A DNA stretch of 59,573 bases from Phycisphaerae bacterium (GCA_018335035.1 JAGXKT010000013.1:1-59573), one strand, 5' to 3'; shown: positions 10,798 to 31,899, numbered from the stretch's first letter. Notes: generated by a model not told the origin, from the sequence alone. Translations and numbers: made by a program.

Positions 10798-11730
10798 TTA
10801 CGTCAGCGACATCAGCCGTTTGATGCGGTCGCCGACCGGGGGGTGGGTCTGCGTGAAGCGCCCCGCGCGGGCCTCGAACTTCTTGATCGGGTGGACGATG
10901 TACAGCGGCGCCGTGGCGCGGTTGGCGACCTCGAGTACCTCTTTGTCGCCGCTGAGCTTGGACAGTGCCCCGGCCAGGCCCTGCGGGTTGCGCGTCAGCT
11001 CCACGCTGCCGGCGTCGGCGAGGTACTCCCGCTGGCGTGACAGCGCCAGGTGAATCAGCCGGGCCAGAATCGGCGCGACGATCGCCAGGACCACCGCGAT
11101 GATGAGAATGGCGATCTGCCCGCCGCCCTTGTCCCGGCTGCTGCTGCGCCGGCGGCGCGTGCCGGCGCCGAACCATAAGCTGCGCAGGAACACGTCGCAG
11201 AGGACCACCAGCACGCCGACCATCACGGCCATCAGCATCGCGTAGCGAATGTCGTAGTGACGGACGTGGCTCATCTCGTGGGCCATCACGCCTTGCAGCT
11301 CGTCGCGCGTGAGTTTGGCGCGCAGCCCCTTGGTGATCGCCACGCAGGCGTGTTTGGGGTCGCGTCCGGTGGCGAAGGCGTTCATGGCCGTGTCGTCGAT
11401 CAGGTAGACCTTCGGCATCGGCAGCCCGCCGGCGATGCAGACTTCCTCGACCACGTGGAACAGCTCGGGGTCATCGGCCTCGTGAATCTGCCTGGCGCGG
11501 GAGAAGCCCAGCAGCACGTTGGACCCGCCGAAGAAGCTCCCGATCGCCAGGACCAGCGCGACACCGCCGGCGATGCCGGCGATGACCAGCCCGAACCGCA
11601 CGTTCCCGCCGGTCCACGCCATGCCGATGACCGTACCGACCAGCGCGAAAAACAGCAGGAAGCCGAGAATCAGCAGCCAGCTGTTGCGCTTGTTCCGCGC
11701 GATCAGTGTGTGAAAGGTCTCGCTGGGCAT
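10798..11730 (-). CDS. HtpX-like M48 family membrane zinc metalloprotease
   Basis: This 310-residue protein has two N-terminal membrane helices (about 18-38 and 46-66). The zinc motif HEMSH lies at 151-155, preceded by LQGVMA. Two further helices follow, and the third zinc ligand falls in REYLADAGSVELTRNP. The end, FTQTHPPVGDRIKRL, is typical of M48B enzymes. These proteases degrade damaged membrane proteins. The gene is 105 bp downstream of a LemA gene on the same strand, a pairing often seen in bacteria. The Ser/Arg-rich insert RRRRSSSRDKGGG precedes the third helix. Confidence 0.9.
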   Translation of the reverse strand: MPSETFHTLIARNKRNSWLLILGFLLFFALVGTVIGMAWTGGNVRFGLVIAGIAGGVALVLAIGSFFGGSNVLLGFSRARQIHEADDPELFHVVEEVCIAGGLPMPKVYLIDDTAMNAFATGRDPKHACVAITKGLRAKLTRDELQGVMAHEMSHVRHYDIRYAMLMAVMVGVLVVLCDVFLRSLWFGAGTRRRRSSSRDKGGGQIAILIIAVVLAIVAPILARLIHLALSRQREYLADAGSVELTRNPQGLAGALSKLSGDKEVLEVANRATAPLYIVHPIKKFEARAGRFTQTHPPVGDRIKRLMSLT

Positions 11731-26717: not shown

Positions 26718-28211
26718 TCAGTACGCCGATCGCGCCGTACGCCGCTTCGGGCGGAAGCGATTGACGAAGAAGTACCGCAACGCGTCGACGGCGTGGTCGG
26801 GCCCGTCCTTGACGGGCACGTCCGGGCGCCCCTGGCCCGCCGGCGGATAGTGGTAGCTGGCGAGCGAATCGATGAGGGCCTCGCAGGTCGGGTCGATCGC
26901 CAGCGTCGGCGCGCCGGACGCCGGCGCAAAGGCGGCACGGATCAACTCGACGCCGTCGTTGACGGTGCTGGCGCGGCAGGTGCAGGGGATGCCCGCGGCC
27001 GCGAGAATCTCCGTGGGCGAATCGCCGCTTCCGGTATCCCGTTGCCGCCCGGCGGGGTCGACGTACGTCATCTCCGGGCGGATGCCGGGCGGGTCGCGAC
27101 GGAGGATTTCGACCGCCTGCTGGGCAATGCCGAGTTGGCAGCGGACGTACTCGTTGACGACATGCAGCCGCCCGCCCGGCGTGATCTGGATCCACAGGCA
27201 CACCAGCGGGCTGGTGTAGCCGAAATCGATCGCGCGGTACATTGGCCAGTCGAGGCACGGCGGCAGCGGGCGGACGTGACGTGCCGGATCGAACTCGGCG
27301 AACACGAGGTTCTCGCGCTGGGCGCCGCGGCAGAGCATTTCGGTCTCCCAGGCGGGGCGGCTGGAGCGGGCCTGGATGGCGACGGCGTCGTCGATGCGGA
27401 AGTAGCCGCGCGCGTCCTTGGCGACGCCCCAGTCCGCGCCGGGCGGCACGCAGTCCCCGGCCAGGGGGCAGCGTTCGCAGCGCCGCGCCGGCGGGCAGCG
27501 TTCGATCACCTCCCACAGGCACCAGTGCATCAGGTGGTAGCCGGCCTCGGACGCCTGCGGCGGACGGGCGCTTTGGCGCCGCCGCGCGGAGCGCACCAGT
27601 TGCTGCATCAGCCCGCCGGGGCGGTGCAGCGTCGAGAGCACCTCGATCGAGCCGCGGACGTCGCCGCCGCCGTCGGCCGAGCGGCTGCGCGTGGCGAACT
27701 GCACCGCGCGCCAGATGTCCGGGGCGAACAGGTCCACCTCGTCGCAGCGGATCTTTTGGACATGCTGGCCACGGACGGCCTGCTGGCTCTGGGCGAGCAT
27801 GCGGATTTCCGAGCCGGTCGTCAGGCGAACACGTTCGCGCGTCATCCGCCCGTCGATCAGCGTCGGATGCCGGCGCAGCAAGGCGCGGACATACACGGCC
27901 AGGCGGTCGGACTGGTCGAAGCTGCCGCCGAGGACGAGGATTTCGGCCGGGGCATGGAACACCGCGTCCAGCAGCGTGGCGACCGCGGCGAGGTACGTCT
28001 TGCCCCCGCCGCGGCAGGCCCAGACCAGAAGGTCCTGCTGATCGAAGAAGCTGGCCGCGAGATAGTCGAGCGGGCTGTTGTGCCCGCGGCAGACGCGGCG
28101 GTCGGGTACGACGATGCCGAGCGCGTCGCGGACGAATCGCTTCAACTCGGCGCGGGTGGTCGGGGCGGTCCACATTTCGACGGCGGCAGCGGGCGGCGAA
28201 GTCCGGGGCAT
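26718..28211 (-). CDS. Orphan phage-type terminase large subunit with Cys-cluster insert
   Basis: This 497-residue protein has a terminase ATPase (Walker A CRGGGKTYLAA near 66-76; Walker B IRCDEVDLF, Asp157/Glu158) and an RNase H-like nuclease (AIDFGYTSPLVCLW near 328, YVDPAGRQRD, and KDGPDHAVDALRYFF at the end). All core motifs look intact. Between the two lies a Cys-rich insert with Cys at 231, 239, 245, 248 and 254 (RCPPARRCERCPLAGDC), suggesting a metal site. AAAGGG precedes the chosen ATG. No portal, capsid or integrase gene is nearby. The packaging motor role is known for the family; its use here is unclear. Confidence 0.85.
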   Translation of the reverse strand: MPRTSPPAAAVEMWTAPTTRAELKRFVRDALGIVVPDRRVCRGHNSPLDYLAASFFDQQDLLVWACRGGGKTYLAAVATLLDAVFHAPAEILVLGGSFDQSDRLAVYVRALLRRHPTLIDGRMTRERVRLTTGSEIRMLAQSQQAVRGQHVQKIRCDEVDLFAPDIWRAVQFATRSRSADGGGDVRGSIEVLSTLHRPGGLMQQLVRSARRRQSARPPQASEAGYHLMHWCLWEVIERCPPARRCERCPLAGDCVPPGADWGVAKDARGYFRIDDAVAIQARSSRPAWETEMLCRGAQRENLVFAEFDPARHVRPLPPCLDWPMYRAIDFGYTSPLVCLWIQITPGGRLHVVNEYVRCQLGIAQQAVEILRRDPPGIRPEMTYVDPAGRQRDTGSGDSPTEILAAAGIPCTCRASTVNDGVELIRAAFAPASGAPTLAIDPTCEALIDSLASYHYPPAGQGRPDVPVKDGPDHAVDALRYFFVNRFRPKRRTARSAY

Positions 28212-28370
28212 GTGAAGACCCTTTCTGTATCCGGGGGTTTGGGGCACGTGGCGCGCCGGCGCGGTGCGGCGCCGCGCGACACGCCGAGGTTAGAGAAGCC
28301 CTGGGGCGCGACCGCGGCGCGGCGCCGCGGCACTGGCGACGCGGCGTACGCCGATGGTATGCTCAGGGGC

Positions 28371-29093
28371 ATGCTGCCACGCACCAGACACGGTCGCTTC
28401 GGCGGGGCGCCGGCCGTCGTCGCGGTGATCCTCGCCGTGGGCGTCGCGCCCGGCTGCAAGGACGATGCCGACAACGAGCCGTCCCAGCGGGCGGCGGAGG
28501 ACGCCGAGCGACAGCGCCGCCGGCCGGCGCAGCCGCACACGCGCCCGGCCGGCGACACGACGCGACGGCGCCCGCTGTGGCGCGCCCTGCAGGCCGAAAC
28601 ACGACCTGACCCGTCGCCGTCGACGCGCCCCGCAGCGGTCACGTCCGCGCACTGGCCGAAACGGTATCGTTATCACAACGACATGGCGCTGTCGCCGGCG
28701 CGCGACGTGATTGTCGTCGACGTCCGCGGCGACGACGGCGCCATCCATCGCGAGGCGCGGCTGCCCGACGACCCGACCTGGAATAACGGCTACACGGCGC
28801 GCCTGCCCGTCAGCGGCGACGAAGCCGTCGTCGACTCGCCCGGCTCGCGCGAAATCCACGTCGAAATCGATCCCGACGTCGGCCGGACCGACTACGCCGG
28901 CTTGACCTTCACCGTGCCCTGCACGCTGGCGATCGACGAGGACGGAACCCTTCGCGCCGACAGCGAAGGGCTCATCGCCACCGACGAACAGGGGCGCACC
29001 TGGCGCAGCACGACGCTGCTGCATCGGGGGCGGGACGCCGTCGTGTTCCTGCGCCCGCAGGCGCCGCCTGCGCCGCGACCGGCGGGCGGATGA
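28371..29093 (+). CDS. Predicted lipoprotein of unknown function
   Basis: The 240-residue protein has a signal and lipobox (VVAVILAVGVAPGC) and then a long Arg/Pro/Thr-rich linker (with TRPDPSPSTRP). It ends in a compact beta-rich region (DVIVVDVRGDDGAIHREARLP, and EIHVEIDPDVGRTDYAGLTF). I recognise no family. TATGCT at 28358-28363 lies seven bases before the ATG at 28371, as at ruvC, which favours this start over the in-frame ATG at 28359. It is opposite in strand to the phage-like genes around it. Confidence 0.65.
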   Translation: MLPRTRHGRFGGAPAVVAVILAVGVAPGCKDDADNEPSQRAAEDAERQRRRPAQPHTRPAGDTTRRRPLWRALQAETRPDPSPSTRPAAVTSAHWPKRYRYHNDMALSPARDVIVVDVRGDDGAIHREARLPDDPTWNNGYTARLPVSGDEAVVDSPGSREIHVEIDPDVGRTDYAGLTFTVPCTLAIDEDGTLRADSEGLIATDEQGRTWRSTTLLHRGRDAVVFLRPQAPPAPRPAGG

Positions 29094-29149
29094 CCGCGGC
29101 GTGAAAGAGCCGCGAGAAAGGCGCGAACGGGACACTTGGGTGATGCGTA

Positions 29150-30448
29150 TCATTGCTGTAGGCCGGGGGCGTTCCCCGACCGACGCCTACCAAACAGGGC
29201 CCCCATAGTGGGGCCCACTTTATTGCGCCGGTGATCCTCTCCTACGGCGACGGTATACGGCATGCGGCGGGCGAGGTAGTAGACGTACCGCCGCCGCCCG
29301 GTGAACAGTCCGAAGCGGTACATACCGGCCTTGTCAAACAGGGGGTGGACCTGTCCCATGGCGGCCAGGGCTTCGATCAGGGGCGTCTCGGCCGTGGCGA
29401 GGGCGTGGCGCACCAACGCCACGCCCAGGCCCAGCCCGCGAAAAGCGGGGTGAACCACCACACGGGAGATGCACTCGATCTCGGCGTTGAGCCGGCGAAG
29501 CCCCTGGCGCTGCGGATGCGTATAACGCCGCGGCAGGGCGGCGTTGCGCCCCCGGCAGCGGAGCACCGGCGGCGAGACGACCAGCACGCCGGCCGGGTCG
29601 AGCCCGCACGCCCGGCTCCAGCGTCCCAGTTGCTCGCCGCGCGCCAGCCACACCCGCTTGTGCGCCGCCGGCGGCCCGGCGAGATAGTGAAAGCGCCCCA
29701 GCGAGCCGTAGTCGGATATCCGCCCCGGCTCGATGCGCCACACGGGCTCGCCCTCCTCTGGCGTCTCGGGCAACGCCGTCAACTCGGCCCGCCCGCCGAG
29801 CGGCTTGAACACGACCCGCTCCGGACGCAGCGCCCCGAGCAACTCCGCCCGCGACGTGCCCAGCAGACATCCGACATTCGCTCGCGAGGCCAGCTTGCGC
29901 AGCTGCCTTGCCAGGACCCACGCCGTGGCGTAATCCAGCGTGGCGGCGAACTCGTCGGCGATCATCAGGCGACGCCGGCTCTGCGCCGCGGCCGCAATCG
30001 CCCGAGCCAGCGCCAAGCGCTCGCGCTGCCCGCCGGACAGCCGCCCGGCCGGGGTGACCAGGGCGGTCGCTTCGGCCAGACCGCACCGGCTGAGCAGTTC
30101 CAGCCGGCGGGCCCAGGCAAGCCGCTGGTCGCCCACGAGACAGACCGCCGGGCGGCGCTCGCCGACCAGGGCGGCCGCGTCGGCGCGCACCGCCCCGCGG
30201 CACCGGCGGGCGACGCAGTCCAGCAGCACGCTCTTGCCCGCCCCGCTGGGCCCGACCACCGCAACGACCTCGCCCGGGCGCACGACGAGGCACAGCCCGT
30301 CGTAGAGCACGTCGTCTCCCGTGGGCCCGCCGCGATCGAGCCCGAACATCGCCGCGACACGACGGGCTTCCCGGCGCCGGGCCACCGGCGGCGCGAACCG
30401 GGCACGAATCACAACCGCTTCCGTGCGGGATGTCACCGCTTTGGGCAT
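29150..30448 (-). CDS. ABC ATPase fused to GNAT acetyltransferase (COG2401-like)
   Basis: This 432-residue protein has an ABC-type ATPase at about 40-230: Walker A GPSGAGKS, signature LSGGQRERLALARAI, Walker B RRLMIADEFAATLD. The switch position reads LLGTSRAEL, with no His. A GNAT domain follows (ISRVVVHPAFRGLGLGVALVRHAL, where RGLGLG is the acetyl-CoA loop). There is no membrane segment, so it is not a transporter. Such fusions are known but uncharacterised as far as I recall. GAGGG precedes the ATG. It is 24 bp downstream of the small HTH gene. Its last dozen residues come from a palindromic repeat. Confidence 0.85.
   Translation of the reverse strand: MPKAVTSRTEAVVIRARFAPPVARRREARRVAAMFGLDRGGPTGDDVLYDGLCLVVRPGEVVAVVGPSGAGKSVLLDCVARRCRGAVRADAAALVGERRPAVCLVGDQRLAWARRLELLSRCGLAEATALVTPAGRLSGGQRERLALARAIAAAAQSRRRLMIADEFAATLDYATAWVLARQLRKLASRANVGCLLGTSRAELLGALRPERVVFKPLGGRAELTALPETPEEGEPVWRIEPGRISDYGSLGRFHYLAGPPAAHKRVWLARGEQLGRWSRACGLDPAGVLVVSPPVLRCRGRNAALPRRYTHPQRQGLRRLNAEIECISRVVVHPAFRGLGLGVALVRHALATAETPLIEALAAMGQVHPLFDKAGMYRFGLFTGRRRYVYYLARRMPYTVAVGEDHRRNKVGPTMGALFGRRRSGNAPGLQQ
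29158..29191. repeat. Palindromic GTAGGC element overlapping the end of the ABC-GNAT gene
   Basis: GTAGG (29158-29162) faces CCTAC (29187-29191), with GGGG/CCCC-rich pairing between them. A second hairpin, GGGCCCC/GGGGCCC, follows to the right within about 30 bases. Together they encode the gene's C-terminal residues, so the element probably inserted into or replaced the original 3' end. Confidence 0.55.
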
Positions 30449-30472
30449 CCGTCCCTCACTGCGTGTGTCACC

Positions 30473-30904
30473 CTAGGCGCCCCGACGCCGCCCGTTGACC
30501 CCATCGACCAGCAAACGCACCTGCGCGGCGATCGCATCCAGACGCCGACGCAACGCGTGCAGCGTCATGCCTCGTTCGGCCGCCAGGGCCTCCAGCGACA
30601 GGCCGTGACAGTAACGGCGCGTCGCGATCTCCGCGTCGGCCGGAGCCAGATACCGCCGCACGCGCAGAATCTGACGGAACCGCTTCGAACGCATCCGCCC
30701 TCCCAGGCGATGCAGGCGATGGCGAACCGCCCGCGGCGTCATCCCCTTCAGGCGCGCCACGCGGTCCACCGGCTCGCCCGATAGCAACACCGCCTCGACC
30801 AGATCACGATCCTCCTCCGCCAGCAAACGCGCCCGCTCCCGCAACACATGATCCGTGCGGGGCAGCTTGCCGGCGCGGCACAAACTCTCGCGGATTGACA
30901 ACAT
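30473..30904 (-). CDS. Small double helix-turn-helix protein (sigma region 4-like)
   Basis: The 143-residue protein contains two HTH-like units: VDRVARLKGMTPRAVRHRLHRLGG near the middle and LSLEALAAERGMTLHALRRRLDAI near the end. Both resemble sigma-70 region 4 or ArpU-like phage regulators. The ATG at 30904 was chosen for its strong AAAGGAGTGG; the upstream in-frame extension would run through AT-rich control DNA. It is the first gene of a minus-strand pair with the ABC-GNAT fusion and divergent from the S24 repressor, so cross-regulation is likely. Confidence 0.75.
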   Translation of the reverse strand: MLSIRESLCRAGKLPRTDHVLRERARLLAEEDRDLVEAVLLSGEPVDRVARLKGMTPRAVRHRLHRLGGRMRSKRFRQILRVRRYLAPADAEIATRRYCHGLSLEALAAERGMTLHALRRRLDAIAAQVRLLVDGVNGRRRGA

Positions 30905-31119
30905 AATGCACCACTCCTTTGTCTGTCCGACACGCGTCGTGCCAAAAACAATCTGCATAAAAAATACGACCTTATGTATCATAGCGAGAATACTTCGAAA
31001 GTCAAGGTCTTTCGTTCAGGATATGTTATTTTTTGTGATACTCCGTAAATGTGTTGCTAGAATAGCATATAAGGGATACGCTGTAGGGTGTACGGGGGCC
31101 TCTGCACGGAGACAGCGCA
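30905..31119. promoter_or_regulatory. AT-rich divergent control region with operator-like dyad
   Basis: These 215 bases are strikingly AT-rich compared with their surroundings. TGCTA (31055-31059), a GAA spacer and TAGCA (31063-31067) form a perfect dyad that overlaps TAGAAT (31058-31063), a plausible -10. TTGTGA at 31033-31038 could be its -35, at 19 bp. A second dyad candidate, GTAT...ATAC, lies around 30976-30993. Such a layout is typical of a repressor operator between divergent early and repressor genes of phage-derived modules. Confidence 0.6.
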
Positions 31120-31899
31120 ATGGGTCTGGGCGACATTCTCAGGCAGCGGCGGCAGCGACTGGGCATGACCCAGGACCAGGTCGCTCAGCGGGCCGGCATC
31201 TCCAAACCGTACCTGTCGAACGTCGAGACCGGCCGGGCGCGCCCGCCCAGCGACGGCGTGCTCCGCGCGCTGGAAGAGGCGCTGAACTGCACCCCCGGCG
31301 ACTTGATGAAGGTCGCTCATCTGGAGCGGACGCCGGTGGACGTGCGCGAGCAGCACGAGCTGCTCAGCGCGGAGGTGGTCAAGCTGCGGCGCGTTCTGAA
31401 AGGGCTCATGGATCGGGCCGAGGGCGGAACGCTCGAGCAGGCGGGTGTGGCCGGGCTGTTCGACGGCGACGAGGCCCCCGTAGCGCCGTCGACAGCCGGC
31501 GCTGCCGTTCCCATCATCAACACGGTCTCCGCCGGCTATCCGCAGCAGTTTACGGACCTGGACTACCCCGTCGGCGCCGCCGAGGAGTACATCCGCTGCC
31601 CGGACCTGCACGACCCGCACGCCTTCGCCGTTCGCGTCGTCGGCGACCCGATGGCGCCGCGCTACCGCCAGGGCGACATCGTGGTGTTCTCGCCCGGCAC
31701 CGTCGCCGAGAACGGGCAGGATTGCTTCGTTCGCTTCGCCGGGGAGGGCGGGACCACCTTCAAGCGCGTGTATACCGACACGCCGGAGACGATCCGCCTG
31801 CAGCCGCTCAACGACGCGTATCCCCCCGACACCTGCCCGCGCGAGCGGATCACCGGTTGCTGGCCGGCCGTCTGCCGCATCGAACACCTCGACCGCTGA
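31120..31899 (+). CDS. XRE-family repressor with S24-like domain lacking the catalytic Ser
   Basis: This 259-residue protein has an N-terminal HTH (LGMTQDQVAQRAGISKPYLSNVETG, 14-38) and a C-terminal LexA/CI-like domain. The cleavage-type Ala-Gly is present (NTVSAGYPQQ, 138-139) and so is the Lys (TTFKRVY, Lys215). The serine motif reads VVGDPMAP: the expected Ser is Pro177 (codon 31648-31650). Autocleavage should therefore be impossible, although dimerisation may persist. It is transcribed away from the HTH/ABC-GNAT pair across an AT-rich operator region. Confidence 0.87.
   Translation: MGLGDILRQRRQRLGMTQDQVAQRAGISKPYLSNVETGRARPPSDGVLRALEEALNCTPGDLMKVAHLERTPVDVREQHELLSAEVVKLRRVLKGLMDRAEGGTLEQAGVAGLFDGDEAPVAPSTAGAAVPIINTVSAGYPQQFTDLDYPVGAAEEYIRCPDLHDPHAFAVRVVGDPMAPRYRQGDIVVFSPGTVAENGQDCFVRFAGEGGTTFKRVYTDTPETIRLQPLNDAYPPDTCPRERITGCWPAVCRIEHLDR

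What the first reader, a model, noticed from the sequence alone, without database searches (positions are those of the whole stretch)
26718..31899. Phage-derived regulatory/packaging cassette without a phage
An intact terminase large subunit, an ABC ATPase-GNAT fusion, a small double-HTH regulator and a divergent XRE/S24 repressor share 5 kb. An AT-rich operator region lies between the last two. No integrase, portal, capsid or tail gene lies near. Established: terminases package DNA, and S24 repressors keep prophage modules silent. Inference: this could be a domesticated module, a gene-transfer-agent control locus, a satellite remnant or a defence cassette. It is the best candidate here for an undescribed system.
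Basis: partly seen in the sequence, partly recalled or inferred. Interest (0 to 1): 0.62.

Follow-up and report, generated by a model that had tools for sequence, protein, structure and literature searches.

The report
Half of a predicted gene-transfer particle
This locus is not a phage remnant but the conserved DNA-packaging and control half of a virus-like particle whose shell genes sit elsewhere in the same genome, and both halves have been inherited together across a whole class of bacteria (Phycisphaerae), as expected of a gene transfer agent.

Summary
The window holds an intact terminase large subunit (TerL), an ABC-GNAT fusion, a double-HTH protein and a divergent XRE/S24 repressor across an AT-rich promoter region.

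TerL occurs in 149 of 297 class genomes at high score, about once each. Its catalytic residues are conserved, dN/dS is about 0.1, and its tree follows RpoB. "Without a phage" is wrong, however. An SPP1-type portal, scaffold, SU10-type capsid and connector genes lie at a second, usually unlinked locus; in the window's genome this is contig C46. TerL and that capsid co-occur in 125 genomes, with 24 having only TerL, 3 only capsid and 145 neither. The head-gene tree also matches RpoB. In genome G046 both halves form one cluster.

Best reading: a split, vertically inherited, phage-derived packaging particle, i.e. a predicted gene transfer agent (GTA) that I could not find described. Particle formation, DNA content and delivery are inferred. 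Tail genes are weakly identified, and the window's S24 has lost its catalytic Ser.

The parts
31120..31899 (+). XRE/S24 (CI/LexA-type) repressor gene; Ala-Gly cleavage site kept, catalytic Ser replaced by Pro (aa 177)
   Evidence: Pfam HTH_3 2e-15 and Peptidase_S24 3e-18; alignment of 22 orthologues
30905..31119 (.). AT-rich divergent control region (44% GC) with operator-like dyads (suggestive only)
30978..31005 (-). sigma70-type promoter TTGACT-N16-TATGAT reading into the HTH/ABC-GNAT genes
   Evidence: 2 sites found, 0.4 expected; near-identical promoters in most f1 loci
30473..30904 (-). double-HTH, sigma70-region-4-like regulator (annotated ORF extends to 30982); predicted late activator
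   Evidence: Pfam Sigma70_r4_2; SD and start; orthologues
29150..30448 (-). ABC ATPase fused to a GNAT acyltransferase
   Evidence: separate adjacent genes in other families
28371..29093 (+). lipoprotein-like ORF interrupting the set; probably not part of the system
   Evidence: lipobox-like N-terminus; no Pfam/PHROG hit; not among families conserved around the locus
26718..28211 (-). terminase large subunit TerL (ATPase + nuclease), all catalytic motifs kept; annotated ORF extends to 28247
   Evidence: PHROG, alignment of 25, model and fold search, start site

Best explanation
The locus is the packaging and control half of a predicted, class-wide gene transfer agent (GTA) of Phycisphaerae. 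The head half (SPP1-type portal, scaffold, SU10-type capsid, connectors and a probable tail block) lies at a second chromosomal locus; in this genome it is contig C46. SHOWN: gene identities, synteny, co-occurrence of the two loci, vertical inheritance of both, purifying selection, conserved catalytic residues. INFERRED: the S24 repressor holds a sigma70 promoter silent; when it is relieved (self-cleavage in most species; in the window species the catalytic Ser is missing, so relief must differ) the HTH-ABC-GNAT-(ParB-TerS)-TerL genes are expressed; the HTH protein helps turn on the head operon, upstream of which no sigma70 promoter was found; the ABC-GNAT pair acts on DNA, probably acylating a base; TerL docks on the portal and pumps host DNA into the capsid with little site specificity (ParB and TerS were not detected in this operon in family f1); the particles carry that DNA to kin.
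For: Synteny S24/HTH2/ABC(-)GNAT/TerL in f1, with ParB and TerS in other families. TerL in 177/297 class genomes, 149 at high score; outside the class only weak, phage-type hits. Chromosomal TerL clade separate from viral TerLs, 98/99 support. TerL vs RpoB: 16 of 25 splits shared, Mantel r 0.79, 0/2000 permutations. PF05133 portal in 32 of 37 TerL genomes. Head locus portal-scaffold-capsid (SU10_MCP E 1.5e-83 in this genome) in 19-20 of 20 fetched genomes. TerL x capsid co-occurrence 125/24/3/145 although the genes lie up to 982 kb apart. Head genes vs RpoB r 0.79, vs TerL r 0.81, 0/2000 each. Linked, ancestral-looking order in G046. dN/dS 0.07-0.14 for TerL, 0.09-0.16 for capsid and portal. 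purB-like gene beside the portal in 5 of 6 f1 loci.
Against: No particle, packaged DNA or transfer has been shown. Tail genes are only weakly recognised (Sipho_tail RIFT E 0.005, Rz-like spanin E 0.009) and their ORFs were found in about 10-12 of 20 loci. No lysis enzyme identified. 24 genomes have a strong TerL without this capsid: three are shown to be phage-type by portal and capsid, two more look so by score, two (family f7) belong to a lineage near the viral clade, the rest are unexplained (assembly gaps likely). No shared operator between the S24 gap and the head locus. The window S24 lacks its catalytic Ser.
Confidence: 0.7

Rival explanations
1. A particle-forming domesticated element that packages DNA but serves another end: killing or decoying competitors or phages, or DNA release, with little or no productive gene transfer.
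For: Packaging and head genes are conserved, but tail genes are weakly identified and patchy, so delivery is unproven.
Against: Portal, capsid and a catalytically intact TerL are all kept under purifying selection, which points to DNA filling, and the class-wide vertical pattern is typical of GTAs.
Confidence: 0.15
2. A DNA-modification or defence module: ABC-GNAT marks self DNA and TerL acts as a nuclease or translocase without any particle.
For: The ABC-GNAT pair is predicted to acylate a DNA base (PMC7824862); GNAT persists without TerL in 62 of 297 genomes.
Against: TerL tracks the capsid gene (125/24/3/145); PADLOC gives no specific match; defence systems are usually patchy and mobile, this one is vertical.
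Confidence: 0.08
3. Recurrent prophage or satellite remnants acquired independently in each lineage.
For: Related TerLs occur in true prophages of the same family and in viral contigs.
Against: Chromosomal TerLs form their own clade, follow RpoB, occur about once per genome and have dN/dS near 0.1.
Confidence: 0.04

Closest known systems
RcGTA-type gene transfer agents of Alphaproteobacteria (PMC7947584 for TerL evolution)
   Same: Vertically inherited, class-wide, phage-derived head and packaging genes under purifying selection.
   Different: Independent origin: SU10-type capsid, SPP1-type portal, an ABC-GNAT(-ParB-TerS) packaging operon under an S24 repressor, and TerL usually unlinked from the head cluster. 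Particle and DNA content unproven.
ABC-GNAT modules of phages (predicted DNA-base acylation; statement in PMC7824862, primary paper not held)
   Same: ABC ATPase and GNAT acyltransferase beside ParB, TerS and TerL, as in Klebsiella phage ST13-OXA48phi12.3 (SSU5-like) and Pseudomonas phage nickie; in Gordonia phage BiggityBass ParB, an ABC-GNAT-type protein and TerL.
   Different: In phages the module runs straight into portal and capsid. Here it is chromosomal, vertically inherited and usually separated from the head genes.
Temperate phages with the same TerL superclade (IMG/VR L071-L079; prophages in G026, G029, G005)
   Same: TerL 32-38% identical to the window's; in G026 also S24, ParB and ABC-GNAT in similar order.
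   Different: They carry phrog_145-type portals and, where identified, a Gp13-like capsid next to TerL, and fall in a separate TerL clade.

Membership tests
Gene transfer agent | Phage-derived packaging and head genes (TerL, portal, capsid) in one genome | tested here: met
   TerL in the window; portal, scaffold and SU10-type capsid at G000:C46.
Gene transfer agent | Vertical inheritance in a bacterial lineage | tested here: met
   TerL and head-gene trees congruent with RpoB.
Gene transfer agent | Purifying selection and intact catalytic residues | tested here: met
   dN/dS 0.07-0.16; TerL motifs invariant.
Gene transfer agent | Structural and packaging loci co-retained | tested here: met
   125/24/3/145 contingency, odds ratio 252, not corrected for phylogeny.
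Gene transfer agent | Functional tail and delivery genes | tested here: inconclusive
   Conserved ORFs after the capsid gene in about half of the loci, only weak tail and spanin hits.
Gene transfer agent | Particles package host DNA and transfer it | not testable with these tools
   Needs culture work.
Intact prophage | Contiguous genome with integrase and structural genes at one site | tested here: not met
   Packaging and head loci lie on different contigs or kilobases to nearly a megabase apart; no integrase recognised among the genes annotated near TerL. Integrase was not searched genome-wide.
Anti-phage defence system | Match to a known defence model | tested here: not met
   PADLOC: only generic ABC and HTH similarity.
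LexA/CI-type self-cleaving S24 repressor | Ala-Gly cleavage site with Ser-Lys dyad | tested here: inconclusive
   Kept in most relatives; in the window the Ser is Pro, so self-cleavage is not expected there.

The most novel reading that the evidence does not exclude
An ancient, independently derived gene transfer agent is present in a large part of the planctomycete class Phycisphaerae. It is split into an S24-controlled packaging locus that carries an ABC-GNAT DNA-modifying pair and a separate SU10-type head locus, so GTA DNA may be chemically marked during packaging.
Probability: 0.6. Interest if true: 0.85.

Novelty: new variant of a known kind. Interest (0 to 1): 0.76.

Why it matters
I found no gene transfer agent described for Planctomycetota in the literature I could search. 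A vertically inherited one spanning many families of Phycisphaerae would add an independent, deep origin of GTAs and a candidate route of gene exchange in a large, mostly uncultured group. It would also show that a GTA can survive with its packaging and head genes far apart, and would link GTA packaging to a predicted DNA-acylating module whose chemistry is unknown and directly testable.

Tried and rejected
1. Capsid-less domestication: searches with PF04860 (1 of 30 over cut-off), PF05065 (3 of 30), the phage-cognate portal profile (3 of 40) and PF20036 (3 of 40) suggested there was no capsid. Overturned by PF05133, which hit 32 of 37 genomes. 2. Encapsulin as partner shell: 4 of 30 genomes, rejected. 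3. Defence system: PADLOC gave only generic ABC and HTH similarity. 4. Shared operator between the S24 gap and the head-locus upstream region: none found. The palindrome search in the S24 gap is suggestive only, because the rows are related and the null was mononucleotide shuffling; a first version timed out. 5. ABC-GNAT fold search returned only ABC transporters among the listed hits and did not resolve the GNAT substrate; GNAT profile against PDB gave weak hits. 6. The first RpoB tree used wrong-frame ORFs for three genomes; redone. 7. Viral-contig search with ABC-GNAT gave only distant ABC hits. 8. The primary paper on phage ABC-GNAT modules is not held; only a citing statement was read.

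Full report
OBSERVATION. The window is a whole contig (G000:C66) at about 70% GC. The four genes are real: TerL, ABC-GNAT, double-HTH and divergent XRE/S24. Probable starts are TerL ATG 28211 and HTH ATG 30904, each with a Shine-Dalgarno sequence. A lipoprotein-like ORF on the + strand (28371-29093) lies between ABC-GNAT and TerL and is not conserved. The AT-rich gap carries TTGACT-N16-TATGAT reading into the HTH gene; near-identical promoters recur in most family-f1 loci.

A CONSERVED UNIT. In 60 relatives and the fetched loci of up to 20 kb, S24 / HTH2 / ABC-GNAT / TerL recur in order across family f1. In other families ABC and GNAT are separate genes, and ParB (Pfam PF02195) and a TerS (phrog_2538) often lie between GNAT and TerL. 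Around the loci of the first sample no further gene family is as widely conserved, and in Sedimentisphaerales unrelated genes such as a sulfatase-like gene sit between TerS and TerL. TerL residues of the ATPase, the coupling motif and the nuclease, plus four cysteines, are invariant in 25 orthologues. The TerL model (pLDDT 86) matches phage large terminases.

DISTRIBUTION AND INHERITANCE. TerL is found in 177 of 297 class genomes, 149 at high score, almost always once. Elsewhere in the phylum there are only weak, phage-type matches. Named records are Phycisphaerae, including Phycisphaerales and Sedimentisphaerales. In a tree with viral TerLs, 29 of 30 chromosomal proteins form one clade (98/99 support); G042 (family f7) falls beside the viral clade. 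Against RpoB, 16 of 25 splits are shared, Mantel r 0.79, 0 of 2000 permutations as high. dN/dS of TerL is 0.07-0.14. In families f17, f21 and f23 GNAT and TerL can lie 15-46 kb apart or on different contigs, yet both persist. These are marks of a resident gene, not of recurrent prophages.

WHERE IT CAME FROM. In isolate phages the same module is contiguous with the head genes: ParB-ABC-GNAT-TerS-TerL-portal-capsid in Klebsiella phage ST13-OXA48phi12.3 and Pseudomonas phage nickie (with small extra genes), and ParB - ABC-type protein - TerL - portal in Gordonia phage BiggityBass. The ABC-GNAT pair has been predicted to acylate a DNA base (statement in PMC7824862).

THE MISSING HALF. I first believed the system lacked a capsid. 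The phage-cognate portal and capsid occur in only 3 of 40 TerL genomes, exactly the three included for their phage-type TerL. But the SPP1-type portal family PF05133 hits 32 of 37 genomes, once each. Around it (loci L403-L422) lie a scaffold (PF06810, below cut-off), an SU10-type major capsid (PF17236, E 1.5e-83 in the window's own genome) and a connector-like gene, conserved in 19-20 of 20 loci. The capsid has 71% mean column identity across families. In f1 an adenylosuccinate-lyase-like gene sits beside the portal in 5 of 6 loci (identified by eye). In G046 both halves form one same-strand cluster: HTH2-ABC-GNAT-TerL-(three small genes)-portal-scaffold-capsid.

CO-INHERITANCE OF THE TWO LOCI. 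Over the same 297 genomes, TerL and this capsid occur together in 125, TerL alone in 24, capsid alone in 3, neither in 145 (Fisher odds ratio 252, p 3e-54; not corrected for shared ancestry). Of the 24, three are phage-type by portal and capsid, G035 and G037 look so by score only, and two belong to family f7. On one contig the two genes lie 2.5 to 982 kb apart. The head-gene tree agrees with RpoB (r 0.79) and with TerL (r 0.81), 0 of 2000 permutations each. dN/dS is 0.09-0.16 for capsid and about 0.10 for portal.

MECHANISM. Shown: a repressor gene faces a promoter that drives regulator, ABC, GNAT and, in many species, ParB, TerS and TerL; a separate locus encodes the shell. Inferred: S24 keeps the system off; induction gives the HTH regulator, which may activate the head operon (no sigma70-like promoter was found upstream of the portal); ABC-GNAT modifies or marks DNA; TerL on the portal packages DNA; particles deliver it. 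In f1 neither TerS nor ParB is generally found in the operon (ParB was seen in L040 only), which fits non-specific packaging. In the window species the S24 catalytic Ser is Pro, so self-cleavage is doubtful there, or the base is an assembly error.

WEAK POINTS. Tail genes are hardly recognised and their ORFs are conserved in about half of the head loci. No lysis enzyme, particle or DNA transfer is shown. Absence calls in draft genomes may be assembly gaps. Most evidence is from metagenome-assembled genomes.

VERDICT. A conserved phage-derived unit: near certain. Two co-inherited loci forming one particle-making element: very likely (about 0.9). A gene transfer agent in function: probable (about 0.7). 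I found no description of a planctomycete GTA in the papers searched.

Noticed in passing
window 31120-31899 (aa 177): The S24 repressor has Pro in place of the catalytic Ser (GDPM) while relatives keep GDSM-type sequence; either a loss of self-cleavage or a single-base error.
   Followed up: partly
L431:7023-8183 and L432:5970-7124 (IMG/VR contigs): Phage-like viral contigs carry a lone capsid gene 63-78% identical to the GTA-like capsid without a recognised adjacent portal; possible capture of the host particle's capsid by phages.
   Followed up: partly
L051:9380-10912, L052:9550-10602 and families f4, f15: Many genomes keep an ABC-GNAT fusion without TerL or this capsid; in L051 it sits near what look by eye like a DNA methyltransferase and a DUF262-like gene.
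   Followed up: partly
L050, L341-L344 (G026, G029, G005): Prophage-type loci in the same family with a related TerL, phrog_145-type portal and Gp13-like capsid; G026 also has ABC-GNAT, ParB and S24.
   Followed up: yes
L065 (G042, family f7): ABC-GNAT-ParB-TerS-TerL locus whose TerL branches beside the viral clade, and no class-type capsid found; possibly a second domestication or a replaced TerL.
   Followed up: partly
L404, upstream of the portal at 11206: A GC-rich inverted repeat (GCGTTTGCGCGCGCAAACGC) occurs twice before the portal; candidate binding site for the HTH regulator.
   Followed up: no
G000:C75:49032-49778: The window's genome encodes an encapsulin (PF04454, E 3e-86), present in only 4 of 30 genomes searched.
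   Followed up: no
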